Origin: Lachnotalea glycerini
Lineage (GTDB): Bacteria; Bacillota; Clostridia; Lachnospirales; Lachnospiraceae
Assembly (NCBI RefSeq): GCF_003201285.1
Contig: NZ_QICS01000021.1
Span: 1 to 45,156 of the forward strand
Reading direction: 5' to 3'
DNA length: 45,156 nt
Shown here: piece by piece, positions 861 through 33,661 of the stretch
Position numbering within the stretch: position 1 is the stretch's first letter
Layout of the letters: every line of letters begins with the position of its first letter
Notes under the pieces: model-generated
What the model saw: the letters and a program-made list of their open reading frames with translations, nothing else
What the model was told of the DNA's origin: nothing
The model's database searches: none
Program-made: the position numbers and the translations under genes

Positions 861-866
861 TTAGAT

Positions 867-939: not shown

Positions 940-951
940 TTTGTTATTATA

Positions 952-18646: not shown

Positions 18647-21163
18647 TCATTCGATAATTTCAATTTCTAACATTCTCACCTCCAATGGCTCTAAAACAGA
18701 AGTAATGGTTAAGTGACCTCCAAGAATTTCCTCGTTATGAATGTATAAGCCTTCAGAGGAGGTTGCTTTTAACAACGCTAAATCTTCTTCATTTAAGGAT
18801 TCGGCTCCCATACGAACCCAATTATCGAATGAAGAACCATAATTACGGTTTACAAAAAATTCTTTGATGGTGCATCGACGTCCCGGCAGGTTTGAAAGAG
18901 TAATTTTGGCAATTGCATCCTGCTCATTTGAGAAAGGAATGTAGCGTTCACTGTTCGTCATATCGAATAACTTTCCAGAAGCAAAGAGCTTTGAATAATG
19001 CTCATAGTTATAATAAACAATAATAATTCGGTTATCTTCCTTAGTAACAAACCAGCCATCACCTCTGCCTAGAAATCGGCTTCCGAGACGCTTCATCAGT
19101 CTTAGTACGTTATAGGAGGCTTTGGGAACGCCATTCATGGTCAATAAGCCAAATCCACCGTGATAAAGTGAGCTTGGTATTTGCATTTCCTCGTGTCGGT
19201 CCGTAATACTCCAATAGCCAAAGGATTGAAGGCGGTCGTAGTTTTCTAATAGATTTTTTGTCAAATAGCAGGATTTAAAACAGGTATCGTTAATTCGATT
19301 ACGGCAGGATAAGGTAAGATTCCACTCGGAAAGATAGTGAGGTAGTTTTCCATATCCCAGCTCTTTCATATTATTTTTAAATTTATTTAAATAGAAAAAA
19401 AAGGCATTAGGGTCTGTATTTAAATTATTTAATATATCATATTGACTCAAATTACTAAAAAACAAAGATTTGTCAAAGCTTTCTTCAAGTTGAATGTTTG
19501 TTGCTGCCGCATCATCGTAGTAATGCAAGTCAATGTAATCAGGTGTGCAGTTCTTAGACTTGATATAATCATTAAATCTTTGAAACCATTCAAAGTTTAA
19601 AAAAGTCATTGGAGGTGTGCCGATTTTAACAGTAGGCAGCATTTGTTTAATGATACAGAATGTTTCGGTATAGAAGAAAAAGAAATCTTCTTCATCATCA
19701 AAGGAAAAGATGCTGGCCGCAGGTTCATTCCAAATATTGACAGGCCATGAGGAAACTTCTTTTAATCCATAACGCTGTATGAAATTCAAAAACAGCTTTT
19801 CAACCAGCAGAATCCATTTATTCATATCCTTTGGTTTACTTATGAAGTCTTTTTTAAAATACACCGTTTTAGAAGTATTGTTAGCTAAGTCTCTGGGAAT
19901 ATAATTAAGACGGATAAAAGGTTTTAATTTTTGTCCGATTATAAAATCCAGAATTTCATTGACATAAGTAAAGCTTAATATGGAGTCTCCATAAGCATTT
20001 TCATGATAAATCATCATATCATCAGAAAGAAGAGAATTGAAGCTAATATACTGAAAACCAATTTCACTTTGAGCTTTTCGTATCATATCCCGAACGGATT
20101 CATATAACAAGAGTTTTGCAGAATTGACGGTCAGCATACTGCGGTAATAGTGATGAAGTATACTAAGAGGAGCATTAAAATCAACTGAGCCGCAGTCTAT
20201 GGTTTTTATCTGGTAGTCAGATTCCGGTATTTCATGGTCAAACAGCTTCAAATACTTACCGAGTTTTTCCAGTTTAGCTGTATCATTTAGGTTGATGTAA
20301 GTCCATTTTGCAGAGGATAGAATCGGCTTTGTAATGCTACAATTGTTTTTAACATAGTTTTTACGATATTCACTTGGGCGGATACCATAATTTTTCTTAA
20401 AGGCACTGACAAAGGAACGTGAATCAGAAAAACCATTATTAACAGCAATGTTTTCGATGGTAGCATCACTTGATAACAATTCATTTACAGCATGCTCTAA
20501 CTTGATGCTATTATAGTAATGAATAAAATTGGTGTGCATGTGTTTTTCAAAAAATTTCGAAAGATAGGATACCGAAAGATTCTGATTTTGGGCTAAATCA
20601 GAAAGTGTTACATTTTCTCTGAAATGGTGCTTAATATATTTTGTAATCATACGAATCCGTTCATTATGCTTGTCCGAATGGGAGGAAAAAGAATGAATTT
20701 CACAAAAGGAGGTATTTAATTCGTTTAAAAGAGTATAAATAATAGCCATTGTTTTGTGATTGTTTTTAATATCAGAATTAGTCTGAATGATTCTTGCAAG
20801 CAAGTAACGAATATAGTTGTAATCTGCATAAGAGCTTTTTTTATTAGTAGAACAACATACAAAATAGTTCTCTAACTTTGCATTATTGTAATAGATGCGT
20901 TCTAAATCCATGTGTAATAGTATTATCTCGCAGGCCTCTGATTTTAAATCATGGATTGCATCACCGTTAATAACGATTAAATCGTCTTCATTTAAGGTAT
21001 ATACTAAATCATCTACGTTAACAACAAGCTGACCGCTTAAAACAAGTATGATTTCGCAGCTTGAATGCCAGTGCCTTGTTTCATATCCGCTTAGCTTGCT
21101 AATAAAAAAGCGAATTGGTATATCAGCGTCATAATGTATCAGCTCATGACTGTCATTTTCCAT
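18647..21163 (-). CDS. AraC-type regulator fused to a GH39 (beta-xylosidase-like) domain
   Basis: An 838-aa protein in three parts. Residues ~10-90 are a cupin-like sugar-sensing fold (HWHSSCEIILVLSGQ). Residues ~172-270 are an AraC double helix-turn-helix (LSDLAQNQNLSVSYLSKFF ... IAVNNGFSDSRSFVSAFKKNYG). Residues ~290-830 are a glycoside hydrolase family 39 TIM barrel plus beta domain. Both GH39 catalytic glutamates appear present: acid/base E480 in IWNEPA and nucleophile E613 in LSEWN. There is no signal peptide, so any hydrolysis is cytoplasmic. The fused domain may instead sense xylo-oligosaccharides or similar ligands. It is divergent from the ROK-kinase gene and is the likely activator of this sugar locus. 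Confidence 0.9.
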   Translation of the reverse strand: MENDSHELIHYDADIPIRFFISKLSGYETRHWHSSCEIILVLSGQLVVNVDDLVYTLNEDDLIVINGDAIHDLKSEACEIILLHMDLERIYYNNAKLENYFVCCSTNKKSSYADYNYIRYLLARIIQTNSDIKNNHKTMAIIYTLLNELNTSFCEIHSFSSHSDKHNERIRMITKYIKHHFRENVTLSDLAQNQNLSVSYLSKFFEKHMHTNFIHYYNSIKLEHAVNELLSSDATIENIAVNNGFSDSRSFVSAFKKNYGIRPSEYRKNYVKNNCSITKPILSSAKWTYINLNDTAKLEKLGKYLKLFDHEIPESDYQIKTIDCGSVDFNAPLSILHHYYRSMLTVNSAKLLLYESVRDMIRKAQSEIGFQYISFNSLLSDDMMIYHENAYGDSILSFTYVNEILDFIIGQKLKPFIRLNYIPRDLANNTSKTVYFKKDFISKPKDMNKWILLVEKLFLNFIQRYGLKEVSSWPVNIWNEPAASIFSFDDEEDFFFFYTETFCIIKQMLPTVKIGTPPMTFLNFEWFQRFNDYIKSKNCTPDYIDLHYYDDAAATNIQLEESFDKSLFFSNLSQYDILNNLNTDPNAFFFYLNKFKNNMKELGYGKLPHYLSEWNLTLSCRNRINDTCFKSCYLTKNLLENYDRLQSFGYWSITDRHEEMQIPSSLYHGGFGLLTMNGVPKASYNVLRLMKRLGSRFLGRGDGWFVTKEDNRIIIVYYNYEHYSKLFASGKLFDMTNSERYIPFSNEQDAIAKITLSNLPGRRCTIKEFFVNRNYGSSFDNWVRMGAESLNEEDLALLKATSSEGLYIHNEEILGGHLTITSVLEPLEVRMLEIEIIE

Positions 21164-21198
21164 CTTTGTACAACCCTTTCTTCATCATTATAAAAATA

Positions 21199-21227
21199 AA
21201 TCTATCATAATTAAGACAAGTTGTCAA
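21199..21227 (-). promoter_or_regulatory. Promoter of the AraC-GH39 gene with overlapping palindrome
   Basis: On the minus strand, TTGACA (21227-21222), 17 nt, TAGATT (21204-21199), about 35 bases before the start codon. A short perfect palindrome GACAAGTTGTC (21215-21225) overlaps the -35 box and could be an operator. Confidence 0.65.
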
Positions 21228-21424
21228 AAATATGAGTTTTATATTAGCTTTTAAAAGCATAGTTACAATGTAAAGTTTATATTTGAAAGAAATAGAATAA
21301 AAAAATGAATAAAAAAAGACAAATATTTGAATAAATTTAATTTAATAAAAGCAATAATTGTTATAGTAAATTAAAATTAGCCCAAATGGACATTTTTTTG
21401 TAAAATATTAAATACTTTGTGATG

Positions 21425-21452
21425 TTGGAATTAAAAAATATTCTAATATAAT
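21425..21452 (+). promoter_or_regulatory. Promoter for the ROK kinase gene
   Basis: TTGGAA (21425-21430), a 16-nt spacer and a perfect TATAAT (21447-21452). This gives a 5' leader of about 125 bases before the ROK start. Confidence 0.6.
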
Positions 21453-21585
21453 AGTTTTAAATGAAAGAGCAAGAGTGGAATGAGGGAAATTAGTTTTAAC
21501 ATCTAATTGACAAAAGCAGCCGTGAAATTGGCGGTCTGATTAGAGAAAAATAGATATAAAAGTAAAGAAAGAAGAGGAAAATACA

Positions 21586-22509
21586 ATGGATAAATATTTT
21601 GTTATTGATGTTGGTGGAACAGATACGAAATACGGAGTTTTGAATCAGGATGCAGATATTTTAGAAAAGGGTGTGACAAAGACAAGAAGTGACCAAGGCT
21701 TAGATGGTTTTCTTGAATTTATCAAGGAACTTTATGAAGAGCATGGGGCAGACACGAAAGGTATTGCGATAAGTATGCCTGGTGTGATTGACGAAGAAAA
21801 TGGTTTTTGTCATACAGGAGGCTATTTAACATTTAACCAGAATCAACCATTTGCCAGCCTATTATCAAAGAAATGTAATACAAAAGTTCATATCAATAAT
21901 GATGGTAAGTGTGTTGCACTTGCAGAATATTGGAAAGGTGCCTTAAAGGGATGTAGGAATGGTTTGGTAATGGTACTTGGCAGCGGAATAGGCGGTGGTA
22001 TTATAATAGATGGAAAAGTTCTTAGAGGGCAGCATTTCTTTGCAGGAGAATTAAGCTATTTATGTACAAATATAAAAGACTACAAAAATCACCAAAGTAT
22101 GTTTGGCGTGGGATGTTCTTCTGTTTCAATGATAAATAAAATAAAGGCTGCAAAAAACATAGAAGATGAAAACTTTGATGGATATCAGGCATTTGAATTA
22201 ATACACGAGGGTGATGAGCAGGCGGTAGCGGTGTTTGAGGAGGTTACAAAAAGTTTAGCACTTGAGTTATATAATCTTCAGGTATTGCTTGATATGGAGG
22301 TAGTTGCAATCGGAGGTGGAATAAGCAGACAGCCGATATTAATAGAAACGATCAAGAAGAATTGGGATCATATTTTAGAAGAATTGCCTTATCATAAATA
22401 TTCTAGCTATATGCCTCAGGCAGAAGTAAAAGCATGTGAATTTACAAGCGATGCTAATCTGGTGGGTGCATTATATAGCTATTTAAATCAATATAAACAG
22501 ATGAAATAA
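21586..22509 (+). CDS. ROK family sugar kinase
   Basis: A 307-aa protein of the ROK fold. The ATP phosphate-binding motif is DVGGTDTKYGVL. INNDGKCVALAE holds the catalytic Asp, GSGIGGGIIIDGKVLRG follows, and the second ATP-binding part is AIGGGIS. The usual ROK zinc motif CxCGxxGCxE is absent; the same region reads HQSMFGVGCSSVSM, as in ROK kinases acting on glycosides such as BglK. There is no DNA-binding domain, so it is a kinase and not a repressor. It probably phosphorylates an incoming sugar or glycoside. It is followed by its own terminator, so it is a separate transcription unit from the genes behind it. Confidence 0.87.
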   Translation: MDKYFVIDVGGTDTKYGVLNQDADILEKGVTKTRSDQGLDGFLEFIKELYEEHGADTKGIAISMPGVIDEENGFCHTGGYLTFNQNQPFASLLSKKCNTKVHINNDGKCVALAEYWKGALKGCRNGLVMVLGSGIGGGIIIDGKVLRGQHFFAGELSYLCTNIKDYKNHQSMFGVGCSSVSMINKIKAAKNIEDENFDGYQAFELIHEGDEQAVAVFEEVTKSLALELYNLQVLLDMEVVAIGGGISRQPILIETIKKNWDHILEELPYHKYSSYMPQAEVKACEFTSDANLVGALYSYLNQYKQMK

Positions 22510-22539
22510 GAAAGATTAGCAATTTCATATTCGACTACT

Positions 22540-22566
22540 GGGGCAAGAAAAACTTGCTCCTTTTTT
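22540..22566 (+). terminator. Rho-independent terminator after the ROK gene
   Basis: An 8-bp stem GGGGCAAG/CTTGCTCC (22540-22547 with 22553-22560, one G-U), an AAAAA loop and six T residues. Confidence 0.92.
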
Positions 22567-22570
22567 GTGC

Positions 22571-22599
22571 TTGACATCTAGTAAAACTCGTATTAATAT
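22571..22599 (+). promoter_or_regulatory. Strong promoter of the epimerase-ABC transporter operon
   Basis: A perfect TTGACA (22571-22576), 17 nt and TAATAT (22594-22599). It starts only five bases after the T-run of the preceding terminator. Confidence 0.8.
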
Positions 22600-22603
22600 T
22601 GGT

Positions 22604-22612
22604 GTTGTATAC
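22604..22612 (+). promoter_or_regulatory. Possible operator GTTGTATAC (copy 1)
   Basis: GTTGTATAC lies just downstream of the -10 of the epimerase promoter, at the expected start of transcription. The same 9-mer occurs in front of the binding-protein gene (24685-24693). It could be a site for the GntR-family regulator at the end of the locus. The inner TGTATACA is palindromic in this copy. Confidence 0.35.
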
Positions 22613-22673
22613 ATGATATAAACATAAACAATACATAAAAAATACGTTCTATTCGAAGTGCGAAAGGAGTTTT

Positions 22674-24595
<1,922 letters not shown>

Positions 24596-24652
24596 TTCAT
24601 AAAAACCAAAAATATATGTGCATAATTAACAAAAAAATAGCATCATAAATAG

Positions 24653-24694
24653 TTGAATTGTCGATTGCATTATCTAATAAGTCTGTTGTATACT
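24653..24694 (+). promoter_or_regulatory. Candidate promoter(s) and GTTGTATAC site before the binding-protein gene
   Basis: Two overlapping options are seen: TTGAAT (24653-24658), 16 nt, TAATAA (24675-24680); or TTGCAT (24665-24670), 18 nt, TATACT (24689-24694). The second -10 overlaps GTTGTATAC (24685-24693), also found at the upstream promoter. The 162-base gap before the gene supports a separate start. Confidence 0.5.
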
Positions 24695-24757
24695 AGACGT
24701 ACAGAAGATGCACATAAGAACTATAGAGCAGGTTCTAAAGAAAAGGAGAGAAGGATT

Positions 24758-25822
24758 ATGAAGAAAAAACTATTGGCAATGGGTCTTATTTTAGCTATGA
24801 CATTTTCAATGGTAGCGTGTTCAAGCGCCAAGGAAGTAAACCGTGATGCAGAAGAAACAAAAACGGAAACAACAACGGAAACAACAACCACAGAAACTAA
24901 TGGGGCAACTGCAAGTACTAAAGAAGTAAAAAATCCATATGTAGATGACATCAAGATAGCATATGTGGCACATGATATCAGCACACCGGTAAATCAAGCA
25001 TGGTTAGAAGGAATTCAAAGAGAATGTGAGTACTATCCAAACATTACAATTCAATCTTTCAATGGTGACAGTTCTGCTGAGAATCAAGTAAAGATTATGT
25101 CAGAAGTAATTAATCAAGATTATGATGCAATCATTATCCAATGCAGTGATGGAGCAGCTTTAGCAGATAGTGTTGCACAAGCAGAATCAGCTGGTATTCC
25201 GGTCATTACTTTAAACTTAGATGCAGACACAACTCACTCTGCACTTGTACAGATGGTGGATTATGATGCAGGTCGTTTGATTGCAGACAAAATTGCAGAA
25301 GAAATTGGACAAGAAGGCAATATTGTAGTAATTCAAGGTATTGCAGGGGTATCCAGAACAGATAATTTGGAGCAGGGCTTTAGAGATACCATGGAGAAGA
25401 GTTATCCTAATATAAAAATAGTTGCAAGTCAGGCGGCTGATTTTGAAAAAGAAAAAGCAACTACAGTAATGACAAGTTTCTTATCACAATTTAGTGATAT
25501 CAAAGCAGTTTTTGCAATAAATGATGCTATGGCAGAGGGTGCATCCCTAGCAGTTCAAAATGCAGGCAGACTAAATGACATGGTTATATGGGGAGCTGAT
25601 GGCGAGAAAGATGCATTGGCAATGATTGAGGAAGGTACACTGACTGGTACTATTTATACAAATTGCTGGGATCAGGGTTCTACAGCAGCTAAGATTGCAT
25701 TACTAATGATTGGTTCTGAATATGATTCCAGTGTTTTGTCTAAAACACCACAGGTAATCATGGAACCTGTGATTGCCACTAAAGACACCGTAGGAGAAAT
25801 TGCTGCAGAAGACCGTTGGTAA
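24758..25822 (+). CDS. Sugar ABC transporter substrate-binding lipoprotein
   Basis: A 354-aa periplasmic-binding-protein-type receptor (type 1 fold, RbsB/CUT2 group). The lipoprotein signal MKKKLLAMGLILAMTFSMVAC puts the lipidated Cys at residue 21. A Glu/Thr-rich flexible linker (about 25-50) tethers the domain. The mature fold has IKIAYVAHDISTPVNQAWLEG, the hinge segment VIIIQCSDGAALADSV, IPVITLNLDAD, and WGADGEKDALAMIEEGTLTGT. The start at 24758 follows AAAAGGAGAG and gives a proper signal peptide; the in-frame extension to 24653 lies in the promoter region. It captures the sugar outside the membrane and delivers it to the two permeases. Confidence 0.93.
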   Translation: MKKKLLAMGLILAMTFSMVACSSAKEVNRDAEETKTETTTETTTTETNGATASTKEVKNPYVDDIKIAYVAHDISTPVNQAWLEGIQRECEYYPNITIQSFNGDSSAENQVKIMSEVINQDYDAIIIQCSDGAALADSVAQAESAGIPVITLNLDADTTHSALVQMVDYDAGRLIADKIAEEIGQEGNIVVIQGIAGVSRTDNLEQGFRDTMEKSYPNIKIVASQAADFEKEKATTVMTSFLSQFSDIKAVFAINDAMAEGASLAVQNAGRLNDMVIWGADGEKDALAMIEEGTLTGTIYTNCWDQGSTAAKIALLMIGSEYDSSVLSKTPQVIMEPVIATKDTVGEIAAEDRW

Positions 25823-25867
25823 TCTGAGGCATGAAAAAGTTATATCTGGTATTTAGTTAGTTAAGCT

Positions 25868-25888
25868 GACGGGGGCATAGCCCCTGTC
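25868..25888 (+). repeat. GC-rich intercistronic stem-loop
   Basis: GACGGGGGC pairs with GCCCCTGTC (9 bp, one G-U) around an ATA loop. No T-run follows. The place, between a binding-protein gene and its permease gene, suggests mRNA stabilisation of the upstream message and lower permease expression rather than full termination. Confidence 0.75.
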
Positions 25889-25907
25889 ATGCTAATGAGG
25901 TGAAAGT

Positions 25908-25973
25908 ATGAAAATTTTTTTCACGACGACCAGAAAGTGCATGCAAAAATCGCACGAATGGAGGAAAATATGA
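25908..25973 (+). CDS. Putative 21-aa leader ORF coupled to the permease gene
   Basis: ATG at 25908 is preceded by GAGGTG (25897-25902) at ideal spacing and opens a frame of 21 codons (MKIFFTTTRKCMQKSHEWRK, then I). Its TGA (25971-25973) overlaps the permease ATG at 25970 as ATGA, the same coupling used through the rest of the operon. The peptide is basic, begins with hydrophobic residues and carries a TTT run. No function is known. It may set permease translation or may be a tiny protein. It could also be chance. Confidence 0.4.
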   Translation: MKIFFTTTRKCMQKSHEWRKI

Positions 25974-26959
25974 AGCAGAGTAATATTAGAAGATTGATTT
26001 CACTTGGATTATTGCTTGTATTAATGATCGCTTTTTCGATATCAAGCACTTACTTTTTGACAGCGGCTAATTTGTTAGAAATCTTTCGTGATGCTTCCGT
26101 GGTTGGAATTATTGGAATTGGTGTAACTATGGTTATTATTACGGGAGGAATCGATTTATCTACAGGTTCTATTATGGCACTTGTTGGAATGACAATTGCA
26201 AATGTATATCGATATACCTTATTACCAATATGGATTATGATACTTATCGGAATTCTGGTAGGTGTTTTGGCTGGTTTATTTAATGGGTTTATTATTACCC
26301 GCCTCCATCTTCCTGAATTTATTGCAACCCTATCAACAATGAGTATTTACAGAGCGATAACATATTTAATTTCGATTAAAGAAAATGGAGTTATTAAAAG
26401 TCAGGCTTTAAAATCTTATTCTTACATTATATTAGGAAAATCAGTTGGAAATATTTATTATGTTATTTTAGCGTTTATTATTTTAGCAGTAATTGGTCAA
26501 ATAATTTTGAAATATACAAGATATGGAACGACTCTGTATGCTGTAGGATCTAATATGAAAGCTGCCCAGCTTTCAAAAATCAATACGGAACGTACAAGAA
26601 CAATTGCTTATGTAATAACGGGTGCATGTGCTGCTGTTGGAGCTGTTTTTACAACAGCAAGAATGCAGTCTACAACAGCGCTTCTTGGTCAGGGAATGGA
26701 ATTTGAAGTAATTGCAGCAGTAGTTGTGGGAGGTTGTTCATTGGCAGGCGGACGAGGAGATATTATTGGAACCTTTATCGGAGCACTTTTTATGGCAACA
26801 CTTGACAATGGTATTTACAAATTTCAAATAAATACAGCATATCAGTTAATTATAAAAGGCATTATTATCATATGTATTGTAGTTTTTGATTCCTGGTATA
26901 ACAAATATATGGATGCTACTTCCAGGAATAAAAAAGTAAAGGAGGAGGCATCTGTATGA
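25970..26959 (+). CDS. Sugar ABC transporter permease (RbsC/CUT2 family)
   Basis: A 329-aa polytopic inner-membrane protein with about 9-10 hydrophobic segments. The family signatures GGIDLSTGSIMAL (N-terminal third) and AVGSNMKAAQLSKINTERTRTIAYVITG (cytoplasmic loop contacting the ATPase) are present, as is VVGGCSLAGGRGD near the end. I choose ATG 25970 because TGGAGGA lies 5 bases upstream. The earlier in-frame GTG at 25937 lacks a site. It overlaps the ATPase gene by ATGA. It forms the transmembrane channel with the second permease. Confidence 0.93.
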   Translation: MKQSNIRRLISLGLLLVLMIAFSISSTYFLTAANLLEIFRDASVVGIIGIGVTMVIITGGIDLSTGSIMALVGMTIANVYRYTLLPIWIMILIGILVGVLAGLFNGFIITRLHLPEFIATLSTMSIYRAITYLISIKENGVIKSQALKSYSYIILGKSVGNIYYVILAFIILAVIGQIILKYTRYGTTLYAVGSNMKAAQLSKINTERTRTIAYVITGACAAVGAVFTTARMQSTTALLGQGMEFEVIAAVVVGGCSLAGGRGDIIGTFIGALFMATLDNGIYKFQINTAYQLIIKGIIIICIVVFDSWYNKYMDATSRNKKVKEEASV

Positions 26960-28485
26960 GTCAGGAATATATTTTAGAGGCAAAAATGATTAATAAAAGT
27001 TTTTCCGGTGTACAGGTGTTAAAGAATGTCAATCTTGGAATAAAAAAAGGTGAGGTTCATGCTTTAATGGGTGAAAATGGAGCAGGTAAATCTACACTGA
27101 TTAAAATTATTACAGGAGTTTATACAAAGGACAGTGGCAAAATACTTTGGAAAGGCAAGGAAGTAGATATTAATAACAGCAAAGACTTGCAAAGTCTTGG
27201 AATTGCATGTGTGTATCAGGAGCTTTCAGTGATACCCGTATTAACGGTAGCCCAAAATATCTATCTTGGAAAAGAGCCTAAAATTAAAAATACCGGTTTG
27301 ATTGATTATAAAAAAATGAACCAAATGGCACAAAGCTTAATTGATCAATATGAATTTCCGTTAAAATCAACGGATATTGTGGACACATTAGGAATTGGTT
27401 TAAGGCAGTTGGTAGAAATTTTGAAGGGACTAGCAATTGATTCGGAGCTGTTGATTATGGATGAACCTACCGCTTCCTTAAGTGGAAGAGAATCTGCCAT
27501 TTTATTTAAAATTATTGATTCCTTAAGAAAAAAAGGAGTCAGTATTATTTATATTTCACACCGATTGGAAGAGGTTTATATGCTGTCAGACCGCCTTACC
27601 ATATTAAGAGATGGAATGAATGCAGCTATATTGGAGAAAGAGGAAATAAAGCCTGTAGCGGTAATTCAAACCATGATTGGAAAAGTAGTAGATGAGTCAG
27701 CTGGTTCCGTAAAAACTTTAACTAAAAATAAAAATGAAATTACGCTGAAAGTAGATAATCTTACAAGAAAAGGTGTGTTTGAAGACATTAGCTTTGAAGT
27801 ACATCGTGGAGAAATTGTAGGCTTTGGAGGTTTAATCGGTGCCGGAAGAACGGAGGTTATGCGTTGCCTGTTTGGTGTAGATAAATATAATAATGGAAAA
27901 ATATATTTAGAGGGCAAAGAATTTGTTCCAACTTCGACAAGAAAAAGTATTAAAAGCGGTTTTGGTTTTATTCCGGAGGATAGACGTGGTCAGGGATTTA
28001 TCCCACTTACTTCCATCAATAAAAATATAGCACTAACGAATTATGACATTATTAAAAAAATAGGACTTGCAGTATCATCTAAGGATGAATTAGAGATGTG
28101 CCTAAAAGCAATTAAAAAAATTGATATAAGGCCAAATAATCCAGATAAGTCGGTAGGTTTATTATCAGGAGGTAATCAGCAAAAGGTCGTTATCGGAAAA
28201 TGGCTAATGAGGGATTTAAAGGTTTTAATGGTTGACGAACCGACCGCAGGCATTGACGTCGGTGCCAAAAATGAAATTTACAATATTCTTTCTGAGCTTG
28301 CAGATAAGGGTGTTGTAATATTATTGGTTTCTTCTGATTTGCAAGAATTATTACGTGTTTCACATCGAATTGTAATTATGAGAAAGGGTCATATTATAAA
28401 AGAATTTTCGGAGGGAACTGTTACGCAGGCGGACATTTTACAGGCAGCTTCTGGAATAGAATCAGATGAGGAGGTAGCATTATGA
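26956..28485 (+). CDS. Sugar ABC transporter ATP-binding protein (RbsA/CUT2 type)
   Basis: A 509-aa double ATPase. The N-terminal half has Walker A GENGAGKST and Walker B LLIMDEPTASLS. The C-terminal half has the usual degenerate Walker A (GLIGAGRTE) but an intact signature LSGGNQQKVVIGKWL and Walker B VLMVDEPTAGID. This tandem, half-degenerate layout is that of RbsA, MglA and XylG. It energises uptake through the two flanking permease gene products. Both ends of the gene overlap its neighbours by ATGA. Confidence 0.95.
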   Translation: MSQEYILEAKMINKSFSGVQVLKNVNLGIKKGEVHALMGENGAGKSTLIKIITGVYTKDSGKILWKGKEVDINNSKDLQSLGIACVYQELSVIPVLTVAQNIYLGKEPKIKNTGLIDYKKMNQMAQSLIDQYEFPLKSTDIVDTLGIGLRQLVEILKGLAIDSELLIMDEPTASLSGRESAILFKIIDSLRKKGVSIIYISHRLEEVYMLSDRLTILRDGMNAAILEKEEIKPVAVIQTMIGKVVDESAGSVKTLTKNKNEITLKVDNLTRKGVFEDISFEVHRGEIVGFGGLIGAGRTEVMRCLFGVDKYNNGKIYLEGKEFVPTSTRKSIKSGFGFIPEDRRGQGFIPLTSINKNIALTNYDIIKKIGLAVSSKDELEMCLKAIKKIDIRPNNPDKSVGLLSGGNQQKVVIGKWLMRDLKVLMVDEPTAGIDVGAKNEIYNILSELADKGVVILLVSSDLQELLRVSHRIVIMRKGHIIKEFSEGTVTQADILQAASGIESDEEVAL

Positions 28486-29477
28486 TAAAGAAAATACGCT
28501 GGGAGAAATACAGCAGACTGTTTATTCTTTTATTGTTTCTAGTAGTGCTTACCATTATCAGACCGAACAGCTTTCCAACCGTAAATAATATTTCTAACGT
28601 ATTATGGTCAATTTCTGTTGTAGGTATTTTAACCTCGGGTTCTATTTTTGTAATGCTGCTTGGGGGAATTGATTTATCGGTAGGTTCATTAATGGGATTA
28701 TCTGCCGTAGTAACGGTACTTACCATACGTCATTTTAATTATTCTAATCAAAGCGTCTTGCTTGGAATAGGATTAGCGCTTTTGGTGGGTGCTGCAGCAG
28801 GTATTTTGCATGGACTTATCGTTATTAAGTTTCAGGTTCCTGCATTTTTGGTTACTTTTGCAACACAAAGCATCTTTTTGGGAATTTCAATGGTATTGAC
28901 TAATAATAAAATACTAAGCTGTTTAGAACCTAAGCTGTTTACAGATATTGGTTTGGGAAAAATAGGTATGTTTACTTTTCCTATTTACTTCATGATTATT
29001 ATTGCACTAATCAGTTATTTTGTATTAAACAAAACAGTTCTTGGACGCTATATTTACGCAGTTGGAGGTAATCCACAAGCAGCAACGATATCAGGCATTT
29101 CAAATGTAAAAATCACCATGATTTCTTATATTGTATCAGGTTTAACGGCAGCAATCGGAGGCGTAGTGTTAGCATCTATGACGCAGCAGGGTATGGCAAG
29201 CACTGGCTCAGGCTACGAAACAGAGGTTATTACAGCAGCCGTAATCGGTGGTGTCAGCTTGGTAGGAGGAGCCGGTACGATACAAGGTGCTATTGTAGGA
29301 GCTGTATTGGTGGGATTATTGAATAATGGTATGAATCTTATGAATGTGCCTTCAACGCAGCAGGGATTGATTAAAGGAATGGTTATAATAGTTGCAGTGG
29401 CAATTGATGTAATGCAAAAATATGAAAGAAAATTTAGCATAAAAAATTTATTAAAGAAAAAAGGTGAAGCAGTATGA
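28482..29477 (+). CDS. Sugar ABC transporter permease (second, RbsC/CUT2 family)
   Basis: A 331-aa polytopic permease related to, but clearly different from, the first one. It shows LLGGIDLSVGSLMGLSA, VPAFLVTFATQSIFLGIS, AVGGNPQAATISGISNVKITMISYIVSGLTAA and VIGGVSLVGGAGTI. Two distinct permease genes suggest a heterodimeric channel. ATPase-permease order and ATGA overlaps on both sides indicate one translated unit. Confidence 0.94.
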   Translation: MIKKIRWEKYSRLFILLLFLVVLTIIRPNSFPTVNNISNVLWSISVVGILTSGSIFVMLLGGIDLSVGSLMGLSAVVTVLTIRHFNYSNQSVLLGIGLALLVGAAAGILHGLIVIKFQVPAFLVTFATQSIFLGISMVLTNNKILSCLEPKLFTDIGLGKIGMFTFPIYFMIIIALISYFVLNKTVLGRYIYAVGGNPQAATISGISNVKITMISYIVSGLTAAIGGVVLASMTQQGMASTGSGYETEVITAAVIGGVSLVGGAGTIQGAIVGAVLVGLLNNGMNLMNVPSTQQGLIKGMVIIVAVAIDVMQKYERKFSIKNLLKKKGEAV

Positions 29478-30385
29478 AAAAAATAGATGCGCATCTGCAT
29501 GTAGCAGATATAATAGCTGGCTATTGCAGACGAGGAGAGCTTCGTGCGATAGGTAATGGTAAGGCAATGTGGGGAAACTCAGAAGTATTTGATTTGCTTC
29601 CAAAAGGCTATGGGGACAAAAACTTTACAGTAGAATCGGCTCTCCAGATTATGGACCGTAACGAAGTAGAGAAAGCAGTATTAATGCAGGGAAGCATGTA
29701 TGGTTTTCAGAATCAGTATCATATTGATATTATGAATCGTTATCCAGAGCGCTTCTGTCCATCCTGTACAGTTGATCCGTTTATGACAAACCACTTTGAT
29801 ACCTTATCATCTTACTTAAAAGACAAAAAATTTCATTTGGTTAAATTTGAGATTAGTTCAGGAGGTGGGTTAATGGGGTGCCATGATCCATTTCCACTAG
29901 TCACAGACAGAATGATGAAAATATATGATTTAATTGAGAAAAACGAAGGTGTCTTAGCAATGGATGTAGGTGATGTTTTTATGCCAAGTCATCAACCGGG
30001 AAACCTTGCAAAAATAGCAGATACTTTTCCAGGTCTTAAGCTTGTAGTTTGTCATCTTCTCGCACCAAATCGTGACAGAGAAAATGAACTGTGGGAAAGC
30101 CTTACATTACTTAAAAAAGAAAATGTTTGGTTCGATCTTGCCGCTTTACCAAAGATTATGGCTCCCGATGTATATCCATATCCGGATGTGAAAAGAGTTA
30201 TAAAAAGGGCAAAAGATATTGTGGGTGTGAAAAGGCTTTTATGGGGAACGGATGCACCATTTGCGGCAACGCAGGATACTTATGAACACTTGGCTGATTA
30301 TCTGGAACAATCAGACATGTTTAGCACACAAGAGCTAGAGGATATTTATTACAATAATGCAGAATATGTATATTTTACTAAATAA
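29474..30385 (+). CDS. Amidohydrolase family 2 TIM-barrel enzyme
   Basis: A 303-aa amidohydrolase-2-like metalloenzyme. The N-terminal metal motif DAHLH (H7, H9), a His after a later strand (VVCHLLAPN) and the final Asp in LLWGTDAPFAATQD are seen. Members act as lactonases, decarboxylases or hydratases on sugar acids and aromatic acids. Given the sugar locus, a sugar-lactonase or a decarboxylase is plausible, but substrate is not decidable from motifs. The insert GRRGEL...MWGNSEVFDLLPKGYG is characteristic of this subgroup. Translationally coupled to the permease gene. Confidence 0.8.
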   Translation: MKKIDAHLHVADIIAGYCRRGELRAIGNGKAMWGNSEVFDLLPKGYGDKNFTVESALQIMDRNEVEKAVLMQGSMYGFQNQYHIDIMNRYPERFCPSCTVDPFMTNHFDTLSSYLKDKKFHLVKFEISSGGGLMGCHDPFPLVTDRMMKIYDLIEKNEGVLAMDVGDVFMPSHQPGNLAKIADTFPGLKLVVCHLLAPNRDRENELWESLTLLKKENVWFDLAALPKIMAPDVYPYPDVKRVIKRAKDIVGVKRLLWGTDAPFAATQDTYEHLADYLEQSDMFSTQELEDIYYNNAEYVYFTK

Positions 30386-30430
30386 TTTGGGGAAGTAAAA
30401 TTTTTAACAGGTAAAGGAATGGTGGCAACA

Positions 30431-31429
30431 ATGAAAAGAATTGTATCTTTTTTCGGTGATGATTCAGATATTTTTCAAGAATTAAATAAAAAGGCGGATG
30501 CATATGCAGCATCACTTGATATGGAATATGAATGGATTCCACAGCTTCCTTTTTCAAAGGATAGTGTGATTCAAGAGCTAAAAAAATCAGATGCAGGAAT
30601 CATTGATATCGAGCCTTATGATGAAGATATCTTTAGTAAGATAGAAGACCGTGCTAAGATTTTAGTACGCTTTGGTGTAGGCTTTGATAAGGTTGATTTA
30701 GAAACTGCAAGTAAACATGGTATTGCAATTGCAAGGACTACAGGAGCGAATACAACCGCAGTGGCAGAAATGGCATTAACACTTATGCTCGCCTGCAAGC
30801 GACTGATTATTAAGGGTCAAAAGTGTGTTATGACCGGCAATTGGGTAAAAGATGTAGGACATGAAATCATCAATGGAACAGTTGGAATTATTGGCTTTGG
30901 TGTGATAGGGAGAAGACTGGCAAAGCTATTAAGCGGCTTTGATTGCAGAATCGTTGTATATGACCCTTATCCAAATTTGAATCTGATTCAGGAACTGGGG
31001 GTTGAACTTTTGCCCTTAGACGAGCTTTTGCAGATATCTGATGCAATTAGCATTCATGTACCATTGCTAAAGGAAACAACAAATATGATTGGCAGAAATG
31101 AATTGAAATTAATGAAAGAAAGTGCAGTTCTGGTCAATACCTCAAGAGGAGGAATTGTTGATGAAAATGCTCTTTATGAGGCTTTATCAAATGGTGTGAT
31201 TGCAGGAGCAGGTTTTGATGTATTTGCAATTGAACCATTGCCACTGGATTCCCCATTATTAAAATTAGAGAATGTAATTTTAACACCACATGTATCAAGT
31301 CAGACGGTAGAATCCTTATGGAACATATATAAAATGGCAATTGACATTGTATATGACTTCTACCATAAAAAGGATTTCTCCAATATTTTAAATCCAGATT
31401 ACATAAATGCAGATAAATACAACGTTTAG
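30431..31429 (+). CDS. D-isomer-specific 2-hydroxyacid dehydrogenase
   Basis: A 332-aa NAD(P)-dependent oxidoreductase of the SerA/2-ketoacid-reductase family. The Rossmann motif is GIIGFGVIGRRLA. Catalytic residues fit the family: Arg in VNTSRGGIVDE, Glu in FAIEPLP and His in TPHVSSQT. Likely role: interconversion of a 2-keto sugar acid and its 2-hydroxy form. The start is uncertain: ATG 30419 (MVATMKR...) has AAAGGA immediately adjacent, whereas ATG 30431 has GGTGG at better spacing. Lies 45 bases after the amidohydrolase gene. Confidence 0.85.
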   Translation: MKRIVSFFGDDSDIFQELNKKADAYAASLDMEYEWIPQLPFSKDSVIQELKKSDAGIIDIEPYDEDIFSKIEDRAKILVRFGVGFDKVDLETASKHGIAIARTTGANTTAVAEMALTLMLACKRLIIKGQKCVMTGNWVKDVGHEIINGTVGIIGFGVIGRRLAKLLSGFDCRIVVYDPYPNLNLIQELGVELLPLDELLQISDAISIHVPLLKETTNMIGRNELKLMKESAVLVNTSRGGIVDENALYEALSNGVIAGAGFDVFAIEPLPLDSPLLKLENVILTPHVSSQTVESLWNIYKMAIDIVYDFYHKKDFSNILNPDYINADKYNV

Positions 31430-31472
31430 CAGGTTTTTAGTTTTTAGGTATTGATATGGGAGGTGATTTGTT

Positions 31473-33002
31473 GTGAAATATTTTTTGGGACTAGATAATG
31501 GTGGGACAGCAACAAAAGCGGCTTTATTTGATGAAACAGGAAAAGAAATTAGTAGTGCTTCAATGGATACTGCAATGATTGTTCCAAAGCCTGGATTTAC
31601 AGAACGTGACATGAATGAAATGTGGGAGGCAAATTGCAGTGTCATAAAAAAGGCAATTGAAAGGTCAAAAGTAAACAAGGAAGATATTTTATGCGTTACA
31701 GTATGTGGACATGGAAAGGGTCTTTATCTTTGGGGAAAGGATGAAAAACCAGTTCGAAATGGGATCATATCTACTGACAATAGAGCGTGGGACTATCCGG
31801 TTCGATGGGAGAAAGAGGGGATAGTAGAGAAAGCATTTAAACTCTCTTGCCAGCATGTATTAAGCAGTCAGCCTGTATCTTTGCTTGCATGGCTTAAGGA
31901 TCATGAGCCTGAGAGCATCAAAAGGACGAAATGGATTTTTTCCTGTAAGGATTATGTCCGCTTTATGCTGACAGGGAAAGCGTTTGGAGAAAGAACAGAT
32001 TATTCGGGTGCTAACTTTATGAATTTACATACCGGTGAGTACGACGAAAATCTGCTTGCATTATTTGGAATTAAGGAATGCAAGAATATGCTTCCTCCTT
32101 TATGCAATGCAACCGATATTTGTGGTTATGTAACGAAAGAAGCGTCGATAAGCTGTGGACTGTACGAAGGAACACCTGTTGCAGGCGGAGCTTTTGATAT
32201 TGATGCCTGTGCTATTGGTGTTAATGTAGTTGACGAAAATCATATTTGCATGATTGCGGGGACTTGGAGTATTAATGAATACATCAGCAGGCAGCCGATA
32301 GAGGATGGTTCTGTTATGATGAATTCTTATTTTTGCCTCCCTGATTATTACTTAATTGAAGAATGCAGTCCAACCTCTGCAGGGAATAATGAATGGTTTA
32401 TGAAAAACCTTCTTCCAGAATTAAGAGAGGAATGTAGGAAAAGAAAAACAAATATTTATGAAATAATGAATGAATGGGTAGAAAGTATTCCAGCTAAAGA
32501 GATTTGTCCGATTTATCTCCCCTTTTTGATGGCCAGTAATGTTCATCCGAATGCACTTGGCAGCTTTGTTGGAATCAGCAATTATCATACCAGAAAACAT
32601 TTACTTAGAAGTGTATATGAGGGAGTTACTTTTTCTCATCGCTATCATTTGGAAAAACTAATGCGTACGAATCGAAATCAGGTAGAGTCTATTCGCCTTG
32701 CCGGAGGTGCAGCAAGATCACGGATGTGGACACAAATGTTTGCAGATATAATGAATCTTCCGGTAGAGAGTGTATCTGTCAATGAGACGGGAGCATTAGG
32801 GTGTGCCATTATAGGAGCAGTTGCAACAGGGCTTTATAAAAATTTAAAGGAAGCGGCCGACAAAATGTCTTTGGTAGGAGAACTTATCAAGCCCGATCCC
32901 CAAAATGTATTAATTTATAACAAAAAGTATCAATTGTATAAGAAGACGATAGATGCTTTGGATGCGGTATGGGATGATTTTCAAATTATAAAAGAAGTGT
33001 AA
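31473..33002 (+). CDS. FGGY family carbohydrate kinase (L-xylulose-kinase-like)
   Basis: A 509-aa FGGY kinase. The N-terminal phosphate-binding motif is LGLDNGGTATKAALFD. A catalytic Asp lies in GGAFDIDACAIG and the ATP-side signature is RLAGGAARSRMWTQMFADIMNLPVE with GALGCAIIGAVATG. It resembles LyxK/L-xylulokinase and related kinases of ketopentoses and polyols. Together with the 3-epimerase it could make L-xylulose 5-phosphate. GTG start at 31473, with GGGAGGTG 8-15 bases upstream. Final gene of the operon before the convergent GntR gene. Confidence 0.9.
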   Translation: MKYFLGLDNGGTATKAALFDETGKEISSASMDTAMIVPKPGFTERDMNEMWEANCSVIKKAIERSKVNKEDILCVTVCGHGKGLYLWGKDEKPVRNGIISTDNRAWDYPVRWEKEGIVEKAFKLSCQHVLSSQPVSLLAWLKDHEPESIKRTKWIFSCKDYVRFMLTGKAFGERTDYSGANFMNLHTGEYDENLLALFGIKECKNMLPPLCNATDICGYVTKEASISCGLYEGTPVAGGAFDIDACAIGVNVVDENHICMIAGTWSINEYISRQPIEDGSVMMNSYFCLPDYYLIEECSPTSAGNNEWFMKNLLPELREECRKRKTNIYEIMNEWVESIPAKEICPIYLPFLMASNVHPNALGSFVGISNYHTRKHLLRSVYEGVTFSHRYHLEKLMRTNRNQVESIRLAGGAARSRMWTQMFADIMNLPVESVSVNETGALGCAIIGAVATGLYKNLKEAADKMSLVGELIKPDPQNVLIYNKKYQLYKKTIDALDAVWDDFQIIKEV

Positions 33003-33007
33003 AATAA

Positions 33008-33050
33008 AGCTATGGATTTCTTCTACATTTTGTAAAAGAAATCCATAGCT
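33008..33050. terminator. Bidirectional terminator hairpin between the kinase and GntR genes
   Basis: A perfect 15-bp stem AGCTATGGATTTCTT/AAGAAATCCATAGCT (33008-33022 with 33036-33050) with a 13-base loop. On the minus strand it is followed by a T-rich stretch (TTTATTTTA), so it ends the GntR transcript. Its right arm and loop lie inside the GntR coding end. Confidence 0.85.
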
Positions 33051-33661
33051 GCTTTACGGCAATTTGCAATATGGGAACGCATCTGGGATGCGGCCTGTTC
33101 ATAATTTTGTTCAATTAAAGAATCTAAAATCTCAATATGCTCTTGACGTGCGTCATGTATATGTGAGCTGTTTTGTTTGCTGTAAACAATGATTCTGGTA
33201 TTTTTCTCGAAGACTTTCTTCATCATATCAATGATATAAAAATTACCGCAATTTTCTATAATAAATAAATGCATCGCAGTATCCATTTTATGATCTGTAA
33301 CAGAACCAACAGGCTGGTTCTCAAACTGCTTTTTCCACGCAATAAGCTCTTCAGTTGGTAAATTATAGCTTGCAAGCCGTAAAGTAAGAGGCTCAATTTC
33401 CATACGTGCTTGAAAAATCTGAAAAACATCACTTAGTAAAATGTCTGTAACTAAAATCCCCTTTTTGGGAAGTACTTTTACCAGATTTTCAACTTCAAGT
33501 ATACTGATGGCTTCTCTGATGGGAGTACGGCTAAAGTTTAATTCTTTCGATAGATTAGCCTCTGTTAGTATACTTCCGGGTGGATATTCACAATTTATTA
33601 GCTTGCTTTTTATAATTGAATAAACTTGGTTTTTTAAATTTGTATTTAAAGTTGAGTTCAT
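33023..33661 (-). CDS. GntR-family (FadR/FCD subfamily) transcriptional regulator
   Basis: A 212-aa regulator. The N-terminal winged helix (LTEANLSKELNFSRTPIREAISILEVENLVKVLPKKGILVTD) is followed by an all-helical FCD effector domain (~75-205). FCD metal/ligand histidines are plausible in DHKMDTAMHLFI, HIEILDSLI and MRSHIANC. Such repressors respond to sugar acids or other organic acids. Its convergent place behind the sugar operon makes that operon the likely target. The stop codon and last codons lie inside a terminator hairpin. Confidence 0.9.
   Translation of the reverse strand: MNSTLNTNLKNQVYSIIKSKLINCEYPPGSILTEANLSKELNFSRTPIREAISILEVENLVKVLPKKGILVTDILLSDVFQIFQARMEIEPLTLRLASYNLPTEELIAWKKQFENQPVGSVTDHKMDTAMHLFIIENCGNFYIIDMMKKVFEKNTRIIVYSKQNSSHIHDARQEHIEILDSLIEQNYEQAASQMRSHIANCRKAAMDFFYKM

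What the first reader, a model, noticed from the sequence alone, without database searches (positions are those of the whole stretch)
18647..33661. Sugar locus with L-pentulose-phosphate chemistry but an incomplete known pathway
A UlaE-type 3-epimerase and an L-xylulokinase-like FGGY kinase point to L-xylulose 5-phosphate, as in L-lyxose, L-xylulose or ascorbate breakdown. But the known routes need a 3-keto-L-gulonate-6-P decarboxylase and/or an L-ribulose-5-P 4-epimerase, and both are missing. In their place are an amidohydrolase, a 2-hydroxyacid dehydrogenase, a beta-propeller protein and a second (ROK) kinase. This combination could be an undescribed route for a sugar acid, lactone or glycoside.
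Basis: partly seen in the sequence, partly recalled or inferred. Interest (0 to 1): 0.72.

Follow-up and report, generated by a model that had tools for sequence, protein, structure and literature searches.

The report
Vitamin-C-type sugar acid route, new decarboxylase
This bacterium carries an operon that looks like a rebuilt version of E. coli's pathway for breaking down oxidised vitamin C, in which an unannotated beta-propeller protein appears to have taken the place of the missing decarboxylase; gene patterns across genomes support this, but no enzyme has been tested.

Summary
The genes are as described, and no 3-keto-L-gulonate-6-P decarboxylase (UlaD/SgbH) or 4-epimerase lies in the locus. 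The pathway is probably not incomplete. (1) A 64%-identical UlaF lies elsewhere in the genome. (2) The FGGY kinase groups with E. coli LyxK, the kinase of the yiaK-S (2,3-diketo-L-gulonate) operon (37% identity, 100/100 support). (3) The beta-propeller (PROP) is the likely decarboxylase. Among 299 family genomes all 28 with a strong UlaG also have PROP, and only one has a UlaD match above 35% identity, outside its ula operon. In a phylum sample, the six genomes with UlaG over cut-off split into four with PROP only and two with UlaD only. PROP usually sits beside UlaE or UlaG. In one genome it completes a yia-like gene run (YiaL, LyxK-like kinase, UlaF, UlaE, PROP). Proposed route: ABC import, amidohydrolase lactonase, reduction of the 2-keto group by the 2-hydroxyacid dehydrogenase, LyxK-like kinase, PROP, UlaE, remote UlaF. 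The decarboxylase inference is strong; the substrate (dehydroascorbate/2,3-diketo-L-gulonate) is moderate; no step has been assayed. The ROK kinase and AraC-GH39 regulator are probably a separate unit. Novelty: new variant of a known kind, with a candidate new decarboxylase family.

The parts
22540..22560 (+). terminator-like hairpin with T tail, between ROK and the epimerase
   Evidence: consensus match only, total number of such matches within chance
22571..22599 (+). promoter-like site (TTGACA-17-TAATAT) before the epimerase
   Evidence: consensus match only, 77 found against 66.1 +/- 8.7 in shuffles
22674..23552 (+). UlaE/SgbU-type L-xylulose-5-P 3-epimerase
   Evidence: NF009689 367 bits, cut-off 200; 43% to E. 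coli UlaE and 45% to SgbU
23549..24595 (+). PROP: FG-GAP-type beta-propeller, candidate 3-keto-L-gulonate-6-P decarboxylase replacing UlaD/SgbH
   Evidence: overlaps the epimerase gene by 4 nt; phyletic and positional replacement of UlaD; invariant His/Arg/Asp/Glu; weak FG-GAP and aldos-2-ulose dehydratase propeller Pfam matches in relatives, none in the window member
24758..25822 (+). lipoprotein-type sugar-binding protein of a CUT2 ABC transporter (ATG at 24758)
   Evidence: Peripla_BP_4; start read from sequence
25970..26959 (+). ABC permease A (likely ATG at 25970; one search lists an upstream GTG at 25937)
26956..28485 (+). ABC ATPase, CUT2 type
28482..29477 (+). ABC permease B
   Evidence: conserved order in relatives
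29474..30385 (+). AHY: amidohydrolase-superfamily enzyme, proposed sugar-acid lactonase
   Evidence: Amidohydro_2 93 bits; model (pLDDT 79.6) with best PDB matches to 2-pyrone-4,6-dicarboxylate hydrolases (lactonases), decarboxylases of the superfamily close behind
30419..31429 (+). HDH: D-2-hydroxyacid dehydrogenase family, proposed reductase of the 2-keto group of 2,3-diketo-L-gulonate
   Evidence: 2-Hacid_dh_C 198 bits; R243, E272 and H291 present at the places recalled as the family's catalytic triad
31473..33002 (+). FGGY kinase of the LyxK clade, proposed 3-keto-L-gulonate kinase
   Evidence: 37% to LyxK, clade with LyxK 100/100
33008..33050 (.). 20-pair hairpin between the convergent kinase and GntR genes, terminator-like (reported on the - strand)
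   Evidence: consensus match only
33023..33661 (-). GntR-FCD regulator, likely regulator of the operon
   Evidence: a 56-63% match in 6 of 28 related loci (L034, L036, L037, L042, L052, L061)
21586..22509 (+). ROK kinase, probably a separate unit
18647..21163 (-). AraC regulator fused to a GH39 domain, divergent from ROK, probably not part of the operon
   Evidence: NEP (479) and SEWN (612) motifs present

Best explanation
The operon 22674-33002 is a functional equivalent of E. coli's yiaK-S (2,3-diketo-L-gulonate) operon, rebuilt from largely unrelated parts. The ABC transporter imports an oxidised ascorbate-type compound. AHY opens its lactone (dehydroascorbate to 2,3-diketo-L-gulonate). HDH reduces the 2-keto group to give a 3-keto-hexonate (3-keto-L-gulonate or its C2 epimer). 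The LyxK-like FGGY kinase phosphorylates it at C6. The beta-propeller PROP decarboxylates the 3-keto acid phosphate to L-xylulose 5-P, in place of UlaD/SgbH. UlaE makes L-ribulose 5-P, and UlaF on another contig makes D-xylulose 5-P. Shown here by sequence: the gene families, LyxK kinship, UlaE, UlaF elsewhere, no detectable UlaD, and the tie of PROP to UlaG/UlaE with near-exclusion of UlaD. Inferred: PROP's reaction (strongly), HDH and AHY reactions (moderately), the imported compound (weakly to moderately).
For: PROP in 35 of 299 family genomes. Strong UlaG (E below 1e-100) in 28 of 299, all 28 with PROP (hypergeometric 4e-33). UlaD query over the same genomes: among the 28, one 47% match (G065), in another operon; 6 with only 26-35% matches; 21 with none. 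Phylum sample of 254 (G000 shared): UlaG over cut-off in 6; 4 have PROP and no UlaD over cut-off, 2 have UlaD over cut-off and no PROP. In 31 of the 38 PROP places, read with flanks, UlaG is present in 23, UlaE in 19 (18 within 300 nt of PROP), UlaF in 14, UlaD/SgbH in 0. In 16 of the 28 UlaG+PROP genomes the OMP-decarboxylase family gives one match over cut-off each, presumably PyrF. L221 (G369): YiaL 52%, LyxK-like kinase, UlaF, UlaE and PROP in one co-directional run, with no UlaG match in that genome. LyxK clade 100/100. HDH-type AHY genomes have PROP in 7 of 9 (6 of 8, plus G251), against 0 of 6 tested non-HDH genomes (Fisher 0.007). HDH or HDH-like genes also lie near PROP in L119, L120 and L227.
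Against: No biochemical data. 7 of 35 PROP genomes in the family sample lack a strong UlaG (one of them, G067, is a partial match; G152 has a 36% UlaG-like gene), so PROP may act on more than one substrate. Divergent PROP relatives (25-35%) may differ in function. 7 of the 28 UlaG+PROP genomes do have some UlaD-related match (26-47%), which could be a decarboxylase there. The close AHY family also occurs without HDH or FGGY, in several loci beside uronate genes, so its substrate may not be an ascorbate derivative. HDH belongs to a D-2-hydroxyacid family and gives no BLAST match to YiaK, so the C2 stereochemistry may differ from E. coli. Two HDH-type genomes (L036, L057) had no PROP. L036 and L061 show no FGGY beside HDH. 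PROP in the HDH-type genomes is mostly in their ula operons, so that co-occurrence may only mean that both belong to ascorbate users. The phylum exclusion alone rests on 6 genomes (Fisher 0.067). The kinase tree tool warned of long branches near the LyxK group. The beta-propeller fold rests on a poor single-sequence model (pLDDT 45) plus weak Pfam matches.
Confidence: 0.55

Rival explanations
1. A plain pentose route: the FGGY kinase phosphorylates L-xylulose (or a product of L-lyxose), UlaE epimerises, UlaF elsewhere finishes; AHY, HDH and PROP act on something unrelated.
For: LyxK is annotated L-xylulose kinase in E. coli; UlaE and a remote UlaF suffice.
Against: None of the locus proteins scanned belongs to a known L-lyxose or L-rhamnose isomerase family. 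AHY is conserved with the transporter, and HDH with the kinase, in relatives; HDH or HDH-like genes recur near PROP (L119, L120, L227). PROP is tied to UlaG genomes.
Confidence: 0.12
2. AHY is the decarboxylase (as ACMSD or dihydroxybenzoate decarboxylases of its superfamily), and PROP does another step such as an isomerisation.
For: AHY's model matches decarboxylases almost as well as lactonases.
Against: 21 of the 28 UlaG+PROP genomes have no AHY match at E<=0.001, so AHY cannot be the general UlaD substitute. AHY has no LyxK-type kinase beside it in 21 of 28 related loci, many of them short contigs.
Confidence: 0.12
3. AHY and the ABC transporter serve an aldonolactone or uronate derivative such as L-galactono-lactone, and HDH-FGGY-UlaE-PROP is a second outlet for it.
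For: Relatives of ABC+AHY sit with UxaB, UxaA, UxaC, KDG kinase and KDPG aldolase (L039, L054) or with a Zn-alcohol dehydrogenase of the PRK10083 kind plus UxaB, with UxaA too in L129 and L132 (L132; same cluster in L126 and L129).
Against: None of the 9 HDH-type loci holds the uronate set; 8 hold none of UxaA/B/C, and L059 has one 35% UxaA-like match. The LyxK-like kinase and UlaE imply an L-xylulose-5-P outlet.
Confidence: 0.2
4. PROP is not catalytic for decarboxylation; 3-keto-L-gulonate 6-P decarboxylates spontaneously or by an unlinked unknown enzyme, and PROP is a helper such as a mutarotase or a sensor.
For: Many propellers are non-catalytic; beta-keto acids can decarboxylate slowly on their own (general knowledge). 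7 of 28 UlaG+PROP genomes have some UlaD-related match.
Against: Complementary distribution with UlaD; invariant His/Arg/Asp/Glu/Asn in 31 aligned sequences; no other OMP-decarboxylase-family candidate over cut-off in 16 genomes tested.
Confidence: 0.2

Closest known systems
E. coli yiaK-LMNO-lyxK-sgbHUE (2,3-diketo-L-gulonate) operon
   Same: A LyxK-clade kinase, a SgbU/UlaE epimerase and a transporter plus a proposed 2-ketoacid reductase; same proposed intermediates
   Different: CUT2 ABC transporter instead of the TRAP transporter; HDH instead of YiaK (no BLAST match); PROP instead of SgbH; an added amidohydrolase; SgbE-type epimerase elsewhere
ula operon (ulaG, ulaABCDEF) for L-ascorbate
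   Same: UlaE; PROP is the frequent neighbour of UlaE and UlaG in Lachnospiraceae ula operons, including one in this genome (L093)
   Different: No PTS and no UlaG in the window locus; UlaD absent and PROP present
UlaD/SgbH 3-keto-L-gulonate-6-P decarboxylase (OMP decarboxylase suprafamily)
   Same: Predicted reaction and place in the pathway
   Different: No sequence similarity found; probable beta-propeller instead of TIM barrel
Aldos-2-ulose dehydratase beta-propeller domain (PF22301)
   Same: Very weak profile match in 2 of 31 PROP sequences (best E 0.013)
   Different: Not significant; PROP is a lone propeller without the other domains recalled for AUDH

Membership tests
yiaK-S type 2,3-diketo-L-gulonate operon | LyxK-type FGGY kinase | tested here: met
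   37% identity, clade with LyxK 100/100
yiaK-S type 2,3-diketo-L-gulonate operon | SgbU/UlaE 3-epimerase | tested here: met
   45% to SgbU, 43% to UlaE; NF009689 over cut-off
yiaK-S type 2,3-diketo-L-gulonate operon | SgbH (KGPDC) decarboxylase | tested here: not met
   no match among the 12 window proteins; none in the genome at E<=0.001
yiaK-S type 2,3-diketo-L-gulonate operon | YiaK-type reductase and TRAP transporter YiaMNO | tested here: not met
   no BLAST match of the window proteins to YiaK or YiaMNO; a 2-Hacid_dh enzyme and a CUT2 ABC transporter are present instead
yiaK-S type 2,3-diketo-L-gulonate operon | SgbE/UlaF/AraD 4-epimerase | tested here: met
   elsewhere in the genome, 64% to UlaF, not in the operon
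yiaK-S type 2,3-diketo-L-gulonate operon | imports and degrades 2,3-diketo-L-gulonate | not testable with these tools
   needs binding and enzyme assays
ula (ascorbate PTS) operon | UlaG lactonase and UlaABC PTS | tested here: not met
   no match among the 12 window proteins; present on contig C5 of the same genome with the second PROP (L093)
UlaD/SgbH decarboxylase family (for PROP) | sequence membership in the OMP decarboxylase suprafamily | tested here: not met
   no BLAST match of PROP to UlaD or SgbH; no Pfam match to PF00215
UlaD/SgbH decarboxylase family (for PROP) | decarboxylates 3-keto-L-gulonate 6-P | not testable with these tools
   inferred from complementary occurrence and position
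FG-GAP/VCBS beta-propellers (for PROP) | FG-GAP-type propeller fold | tested here: inconclusive
   22 of 31 members match FG-GAP_3 (best E 1.3e-4) and 14 match FG-GAP (best E 3.5e-5), window member none; low-confidence all-beta model, listed top PDB matches mostly propellers
Amidohydrolase family 2 (for AHY) | Amidohydro_2 domain with HxH and later metal-ligand residues | tested here: met
   93 bits, cut-off 26.4; DAHLH, CHLL and WGTDAPF motifs, their reading as metal ligands recalled

The most novel reading that the evidence does not exclude
PROP founds a new family of 3-keto-sugar-acid-phosphate decarboxylases with a beta-propeller fold. It replaces UlaD across ascorbate users of the Lachnospiraceae and some other families of the phylum, and serves at least three upstream routes: PTS plus UlaG; an MFS transporter, YiaL and ketopantoate-reductase-like route (L221); and the ABC plus amidohydrolase plus 2-hydroxyacid dehydrogenase route of this window.
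Probability: 0.65. Interest if true: 0.8.

Novelty: new variant of a known kind. Interest (0 to 1): 0.66.

Why it matters
Ascorbate breakdown by Lachnospiraceae would be misread as incomplete wherever UlaD is used as the marker: in this sample only one of 28 UlaG-bearing family genomes has a UlaD match above 35% identity. If PROP is the decarboxylase, an orphan protein family gets a function, a propeller is shown doing beta-keto acid decarboxylation, and the genomic basis of vitamin C use by a major family of gut and rumen bacteria becomes readable. The window adds a candidate route for oxidised vitamin C built from non-homologous enzymes.

Tried and rejected
Considered and set aside: (a) UlaD hidden elsewhere in the genome: UlaD protein and NF009832 searches found none in G000 (the NF009832 control rang over cut-off in 1 of 14 named genomes), and PF00215 gave a single match over cut-off in each of 16 genomes, presumably PyrF. 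(b) ROK kinase and AraC-GH39 as pathway parts: a hairpin separates them and ROK is absent from the gene maps and only weakly matched (26%, L107) in the loci listed. (c) D-apiose or tetritol routes, suggested by recalled ligands of distant binding-protein relatives: no transketolase or RuBisCO-like protein among the locus proteins scanned. (d) A reliable PROP structure: single-sequence model only, pLDDT 45, because loci from the genome search are not on the list of inputs for that tool; its listed PDB matches are mostly generic propellers. (e) Viral contigs for PROP: no relative. (f) PDB by sequence for PROP: nothing credible. (g) Papers: eight searches ran; several listings were cut (20 of 49, 15 of 525 and 12 of 30 papers). 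None of the listed titles or abstract starts reported ascorbate genes with a propeller in place of UlaD. I read passages of PMC3219644 and PMC6958661 and one full section of PMC3219644 (section 9), not the whole texts.

Counts and dropped rows: L062 (a short Planctomycetota match) was left out of the module counts. Some locus gene maps come from a simple ORF picker that mis-assigned strands in GC-rich MAG contigs, so the later counts use tblastn. One filler stretch (L230:7000-7100) was not a gene. One sequence of the 32 listed (L113, truncated) was left out of alignment A1, and 22 of the 27 references listed there went into alignment A2. L061's AHY, broken in the assembly, is not in the AHY tree. 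In one search the genomes of only 6 of the 19 non-HDH loci were tested for PROP. In one search 16 of the 28 UlaG genomes were tested. One search's 31 loci are 31 of the 38 PROP places; of the other seven, one is the window, four (G038, G085, G152, G256) were also read and show no UlaD, and two (G067 and the second place in G253) were not read.


Full report
WHAT IS THERE. The window lies in a 4.86 Mb genome of 48 contigs, held as G000. It is probably a Lachnospiraceae genome, judged from the many Lachnospiraceae titles among the named relatives. The stated genes are present at the stated places and their families are confirmed by Pfam and NCBIfam. Gene spacing and a hairpin scan suggest an operon from the epimerase to the FGGY kinase, 22674-33002. 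A terminator-like hairpin with a T tail at 22540-22560 and a promoter-like site at 22571-22599 lie before the epimerase. A 20-pair hairpin lies between the convergent kinase and GntR genes. These are consensus matches; the region as a whole has no more of them than shuffles give (terminator-like 10 against 7.6 +/- 3.1, promoter-like 77 against 66.1 +/- 8.7). Four of the eight junctions overlap by 4 nt, including epimerase/propeller. No terminator-like site was found between the propeller and the binding protein, but there is a 162-nt gap. The ROK kinase and the divergent AraC-GH39 gene therefore probably form another unit.

TWO MODULES. The transporter, amidohydrolase (AHY), 2-hydroxyacid dehydrogenase (HDH) and FGGY kinase form module A. 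A scan of genome contigs with AHY gave 29 loci. Leaving out one short Planctomycetota match (L062), 28 remain, many on short contigs. By tblastn HDH is present in 9 of 28, a ketopantoate-reductase-like gene (ApbA) in 9 of 28, and never both. A kinase like the window's is present in 7 of the 9 HDH loci and in none of the other 19 (L039 has a 24% match, which groups with GlpK in the tree). UlaE is present in 2 of 28 (L056, L057) and PROP in none. Several loci without HDH carry hexuronate genes such as UxaB, UxaA, UxaC, KDG kinase and KDPG aldolase. AHY and its transporter can thus serve more than one downstream route. In the AHY tree (L061 not included) the HDH-type rows fall in two groups: one of 5 rows with the window (98/97), which also holds the cupin-type row L052, and one of 5 rows (L056-L060, 100/100).

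Module B is UlaE plus the propeller (PROP). PROP occurs in 35 of 299 genomes sampled from the family, at 38 places. Thirty-one of these places were read with up to 10 kb on each side where the contig allowed. They hold UlaG in 23, UlaE in 19 (18 within 300 nt of PROP), UlaF in 14, UlaA in 10 and UlaC in 9; UlaD or SgbH in none. A second PROP of this genome, 58% identical, sits in such a ula operon on contig C5 with UlaG 61%, UlaABC and UlaE. Pfam calls representatives of the neighbours PTS EIIC-GAT, PTS IIB, PTS IIA, metallo-beta-lactamase, DeoR and Aldolase_II, and NCBIfam calls one of these lactonases (L115) L-ascorbate-6-phosphate lactonase, 617 bits against a cut-off of 306.

PROP REPLACES ULAD. 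In the same 299 family genomes strong UlaG matches (E below 1e-100) occur in 28, and all 28 are in the PROP list (hypergeometric probability 4e-33). One further genome, G152, has a 36% UlaG-like match and also has PROP. From the coordinates, 25 of 30 such UlaG places lie within 10 kb of PROP; of the other five, three are on different contigs, one lies 11 kb away and one 34 kb away. The E. coli UlaD query finds a 47% match in one UlaG genome (G065; 247.7 bits against a cut-off of 250), on a short contig with an aldo-keto reductase, a UlaE-like gene and a phosphotriesterase-like gene and no UlaG. Six other UlaG genomes have only 26-35% matches, and 21 of 28 have none at E<=0.001. In 16 of the 28 genomes tested, the OMP decarboxylase family gives exactly one match over cut-off, presumably PyrF; one genome has a second, marginal match. 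In a separate phylum sample of 254 genomes (G000 is in both) UlaG is over cut-off in 6. Four of these have PROP and no UlaD over cut-off (one, G327, has a 24-bit match); two have UlaD over cut-off and no PROP. The exclusion is perfect but the sample small (Fisher 0.067). In the two UlaD genomes UlaD directly precedes UlaE (L222, L223), and in 18 of the 31 PROP loci PROP lies within 300 nt of UlaE, before or after it. UlaG, UlaABC, UlaE and UlaF have clear homologues in these operons, so the missing reaction and the unassigned frequent gene coincide. Among the clusters found in ten or more loci, the others are UlaG, DeoR, UlaF, the PTS IIC part and two ABC permease families (the permeases by their place beside binding proteins only).

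PROP IS LIKELY AN ENZYME. In 31 aligned sequences E33, H111, R112, D138, N175, H176, D227, H243, H270, R288, N319, N335, R336 and E337 are invariant. Pfam finds weak FG-GAP_3 matches in 22 of 31 members (best E 1.3e-4), FG-GAP in 14 (best E 3.5e-5), and the aldos-2-ulose dehydratase propeller in 2 (best E 0.013); the window member itself matches nothing at E<=1. The AlphaFold model from the single sequence is poor (pLDDT 45); its listed top PDB matches are mostly propellers but of no specific family. The fold is therefore probable, not shown.

WHY THE WINDOW LOOKS LIKE A YIA-TYPE ROUTE. Among seven E. coli FGGY kinases the window kinase is closest to LyxK (37%, 343 bits; next LsrK 24%, 163 bits) and groups with LyxK at 100/100; the tree tool warned of long branches meeting at the base of that group. 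LyxK is part of yiaK-sgbE, annotated in the K-12 record as 2,3-diketo-L-gulonate reductase, 2,3-diketo-L-gulonate symporter, LyxK, SgbH, SgbU and SgbE. A genome of another family, G369, has one co-directional run of an ApbA-type reductase, a YiaL homologue (52% over 122 residues), an MFS transporter, an AP_endonuc_2 protein, a LyxK-clade kinase (47% to the window's), a weak GntR match, UlaF, UlaE and PROP (L221), and no UlaG match in the genome. This is close to the yia set with PROP in the place of SgbH. In the window HDH would take the role of YiaK: both would reduce the 2-keto group of 2,3-diketo-L-gulonate. YiaK itself gives no BLAST match to any window protein. From recalled family knowledge HDH should give the D configuration at C2, whereas YiaK-type enzymes give L; since C2 loses its carboxylate in the next step, both epimers would lead to L-xylulose 5-P (inference). 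AHY's model (pLDDT 79.6) has its best PDB match with a probable 2-pyrone-4,6-dicarboxylate hydrolase, with Atu3138 (recalled as a galactarolactone isomerase) and decarboxylases of the same superfamily also matched, so a lactonase acting on dehydroascorbate is plausible but not unique. UlaF is on contig C20 (64%).

CO-OCCURRENCE OF THE MODULES. PROP was sought in the genomes behind 14 named AHY loci. It is in 6 of 8 HDH-type genomes and 0 of 6 tested genomes without HDH. A ninth HDH-type locus, L035, lies on a contig of the same length as G251:C39 with an identical kinase, and G251 has PROP, giving 7 of 9 (Fisher 0.007 against 0 of 6; 1.6e-5 against the family rate). In 4 of the 6 genomes PROP sits beside ula PTS genes and UlaG (L231-L233, L235); L234 is cut by the contig end and L236 shows UlaE, PROP and UlaF. 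Module A thus occurs where the lower ascorbate pathway exists, which fits a shared lower route but could also only mean that both belong to ascorbate users. HDH or HDH-like genes also lie close to PROP in L120 (AHY 24%, HDH 62%, PROP 46%, adjacent), L119 and L227. PROP of the window and of L221 falls in one clade with most ula-operon PROPs (100/99, 39 rows, poorly resolved inside).

WHAT SPEAKS AGAINST. No assay exists. Seven of 35 PROP genomes lack a strong UlaG, and 7 of 28 UlaG+PROP genomes have some UlaD-related match. AHY relatives sit with uronate or Zn-alcohol-dehydrogenase/UxaB genes, so the transported compound could be an aldonolactone or uronate derivative. Two HDH-type genomes lack PROP; both are assemblies of uncultured bacteria by their titles. 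A direct pentose route would not explain AHY, HDH or PROP.

LITERATURE. [quoted passage not shown] the word 'propeller' does not occur in its main text. That statement does not hold for the Lachnospiraceae sampled here as far as ulaD is concerned. PMC6958661 (passages seen) links the yia operon to ascorbate and galacturonate. In the listings of the eight paper searches, some of them cut, I saw no report of the propeller; most subscription papers, and the two looked up by id, are not held, so prior description cannot be ruled out.

VERDICT. The locus is best explained as a non-homologous rebuild of the yia-type route, with a candidate new decarboxylase family as its most interesting part.

Noticed in passing
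L096, L107 and L117 (PROP loci of G148, G104, G250): UlaG and PROP sit with a binding protein and two permeases of another ABC transporter type and an FGGY kinase outside the LyxK clade, suggesting ascorbate uptake without PTS followed by a kinase.
   Followed up: partly
L219 (G065:C12): A UlaD homologue (46-47%) sits with an aldo-keto reductase, a UlaE-like gene and a phosphotriesterase-like gene on a short contig, apart from UlaG; possibly another lactone route.
   Followed up: partly
L039, L054 and similar loci: The same ABC transporter and amidohydrolase type with a small cupin-like protein, a ketopantoate-reductase-like gene, in most a YhcH protein, in some a putative cyclase, and hexuronate genes; substrate unknown.
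   Followed up: partly
L132 (G000:C16): A second amidohydrolase (42-43%) with its own CUT2-like transporter next to UxaB, UxaA and a Zn-alcohol dehydrogenase of the PRK10083 kind: a candidate L-galactonate or lactone locus in the same genome.
   Followed up: no
window 18647-21163: AraC regulator fused to a GH39 domain with NEP (479) and SEWN (612) motifs; best NCBIfam match AryK, below cut-off; divergent from the ROK gene; may sense a glycoside.
   Followed up: no
window 183-940: Cluster of seven tRNA genes (Asp, Val, Thr, Tyr, Met, Phe, Lys) at the window start.
   Followed up: no
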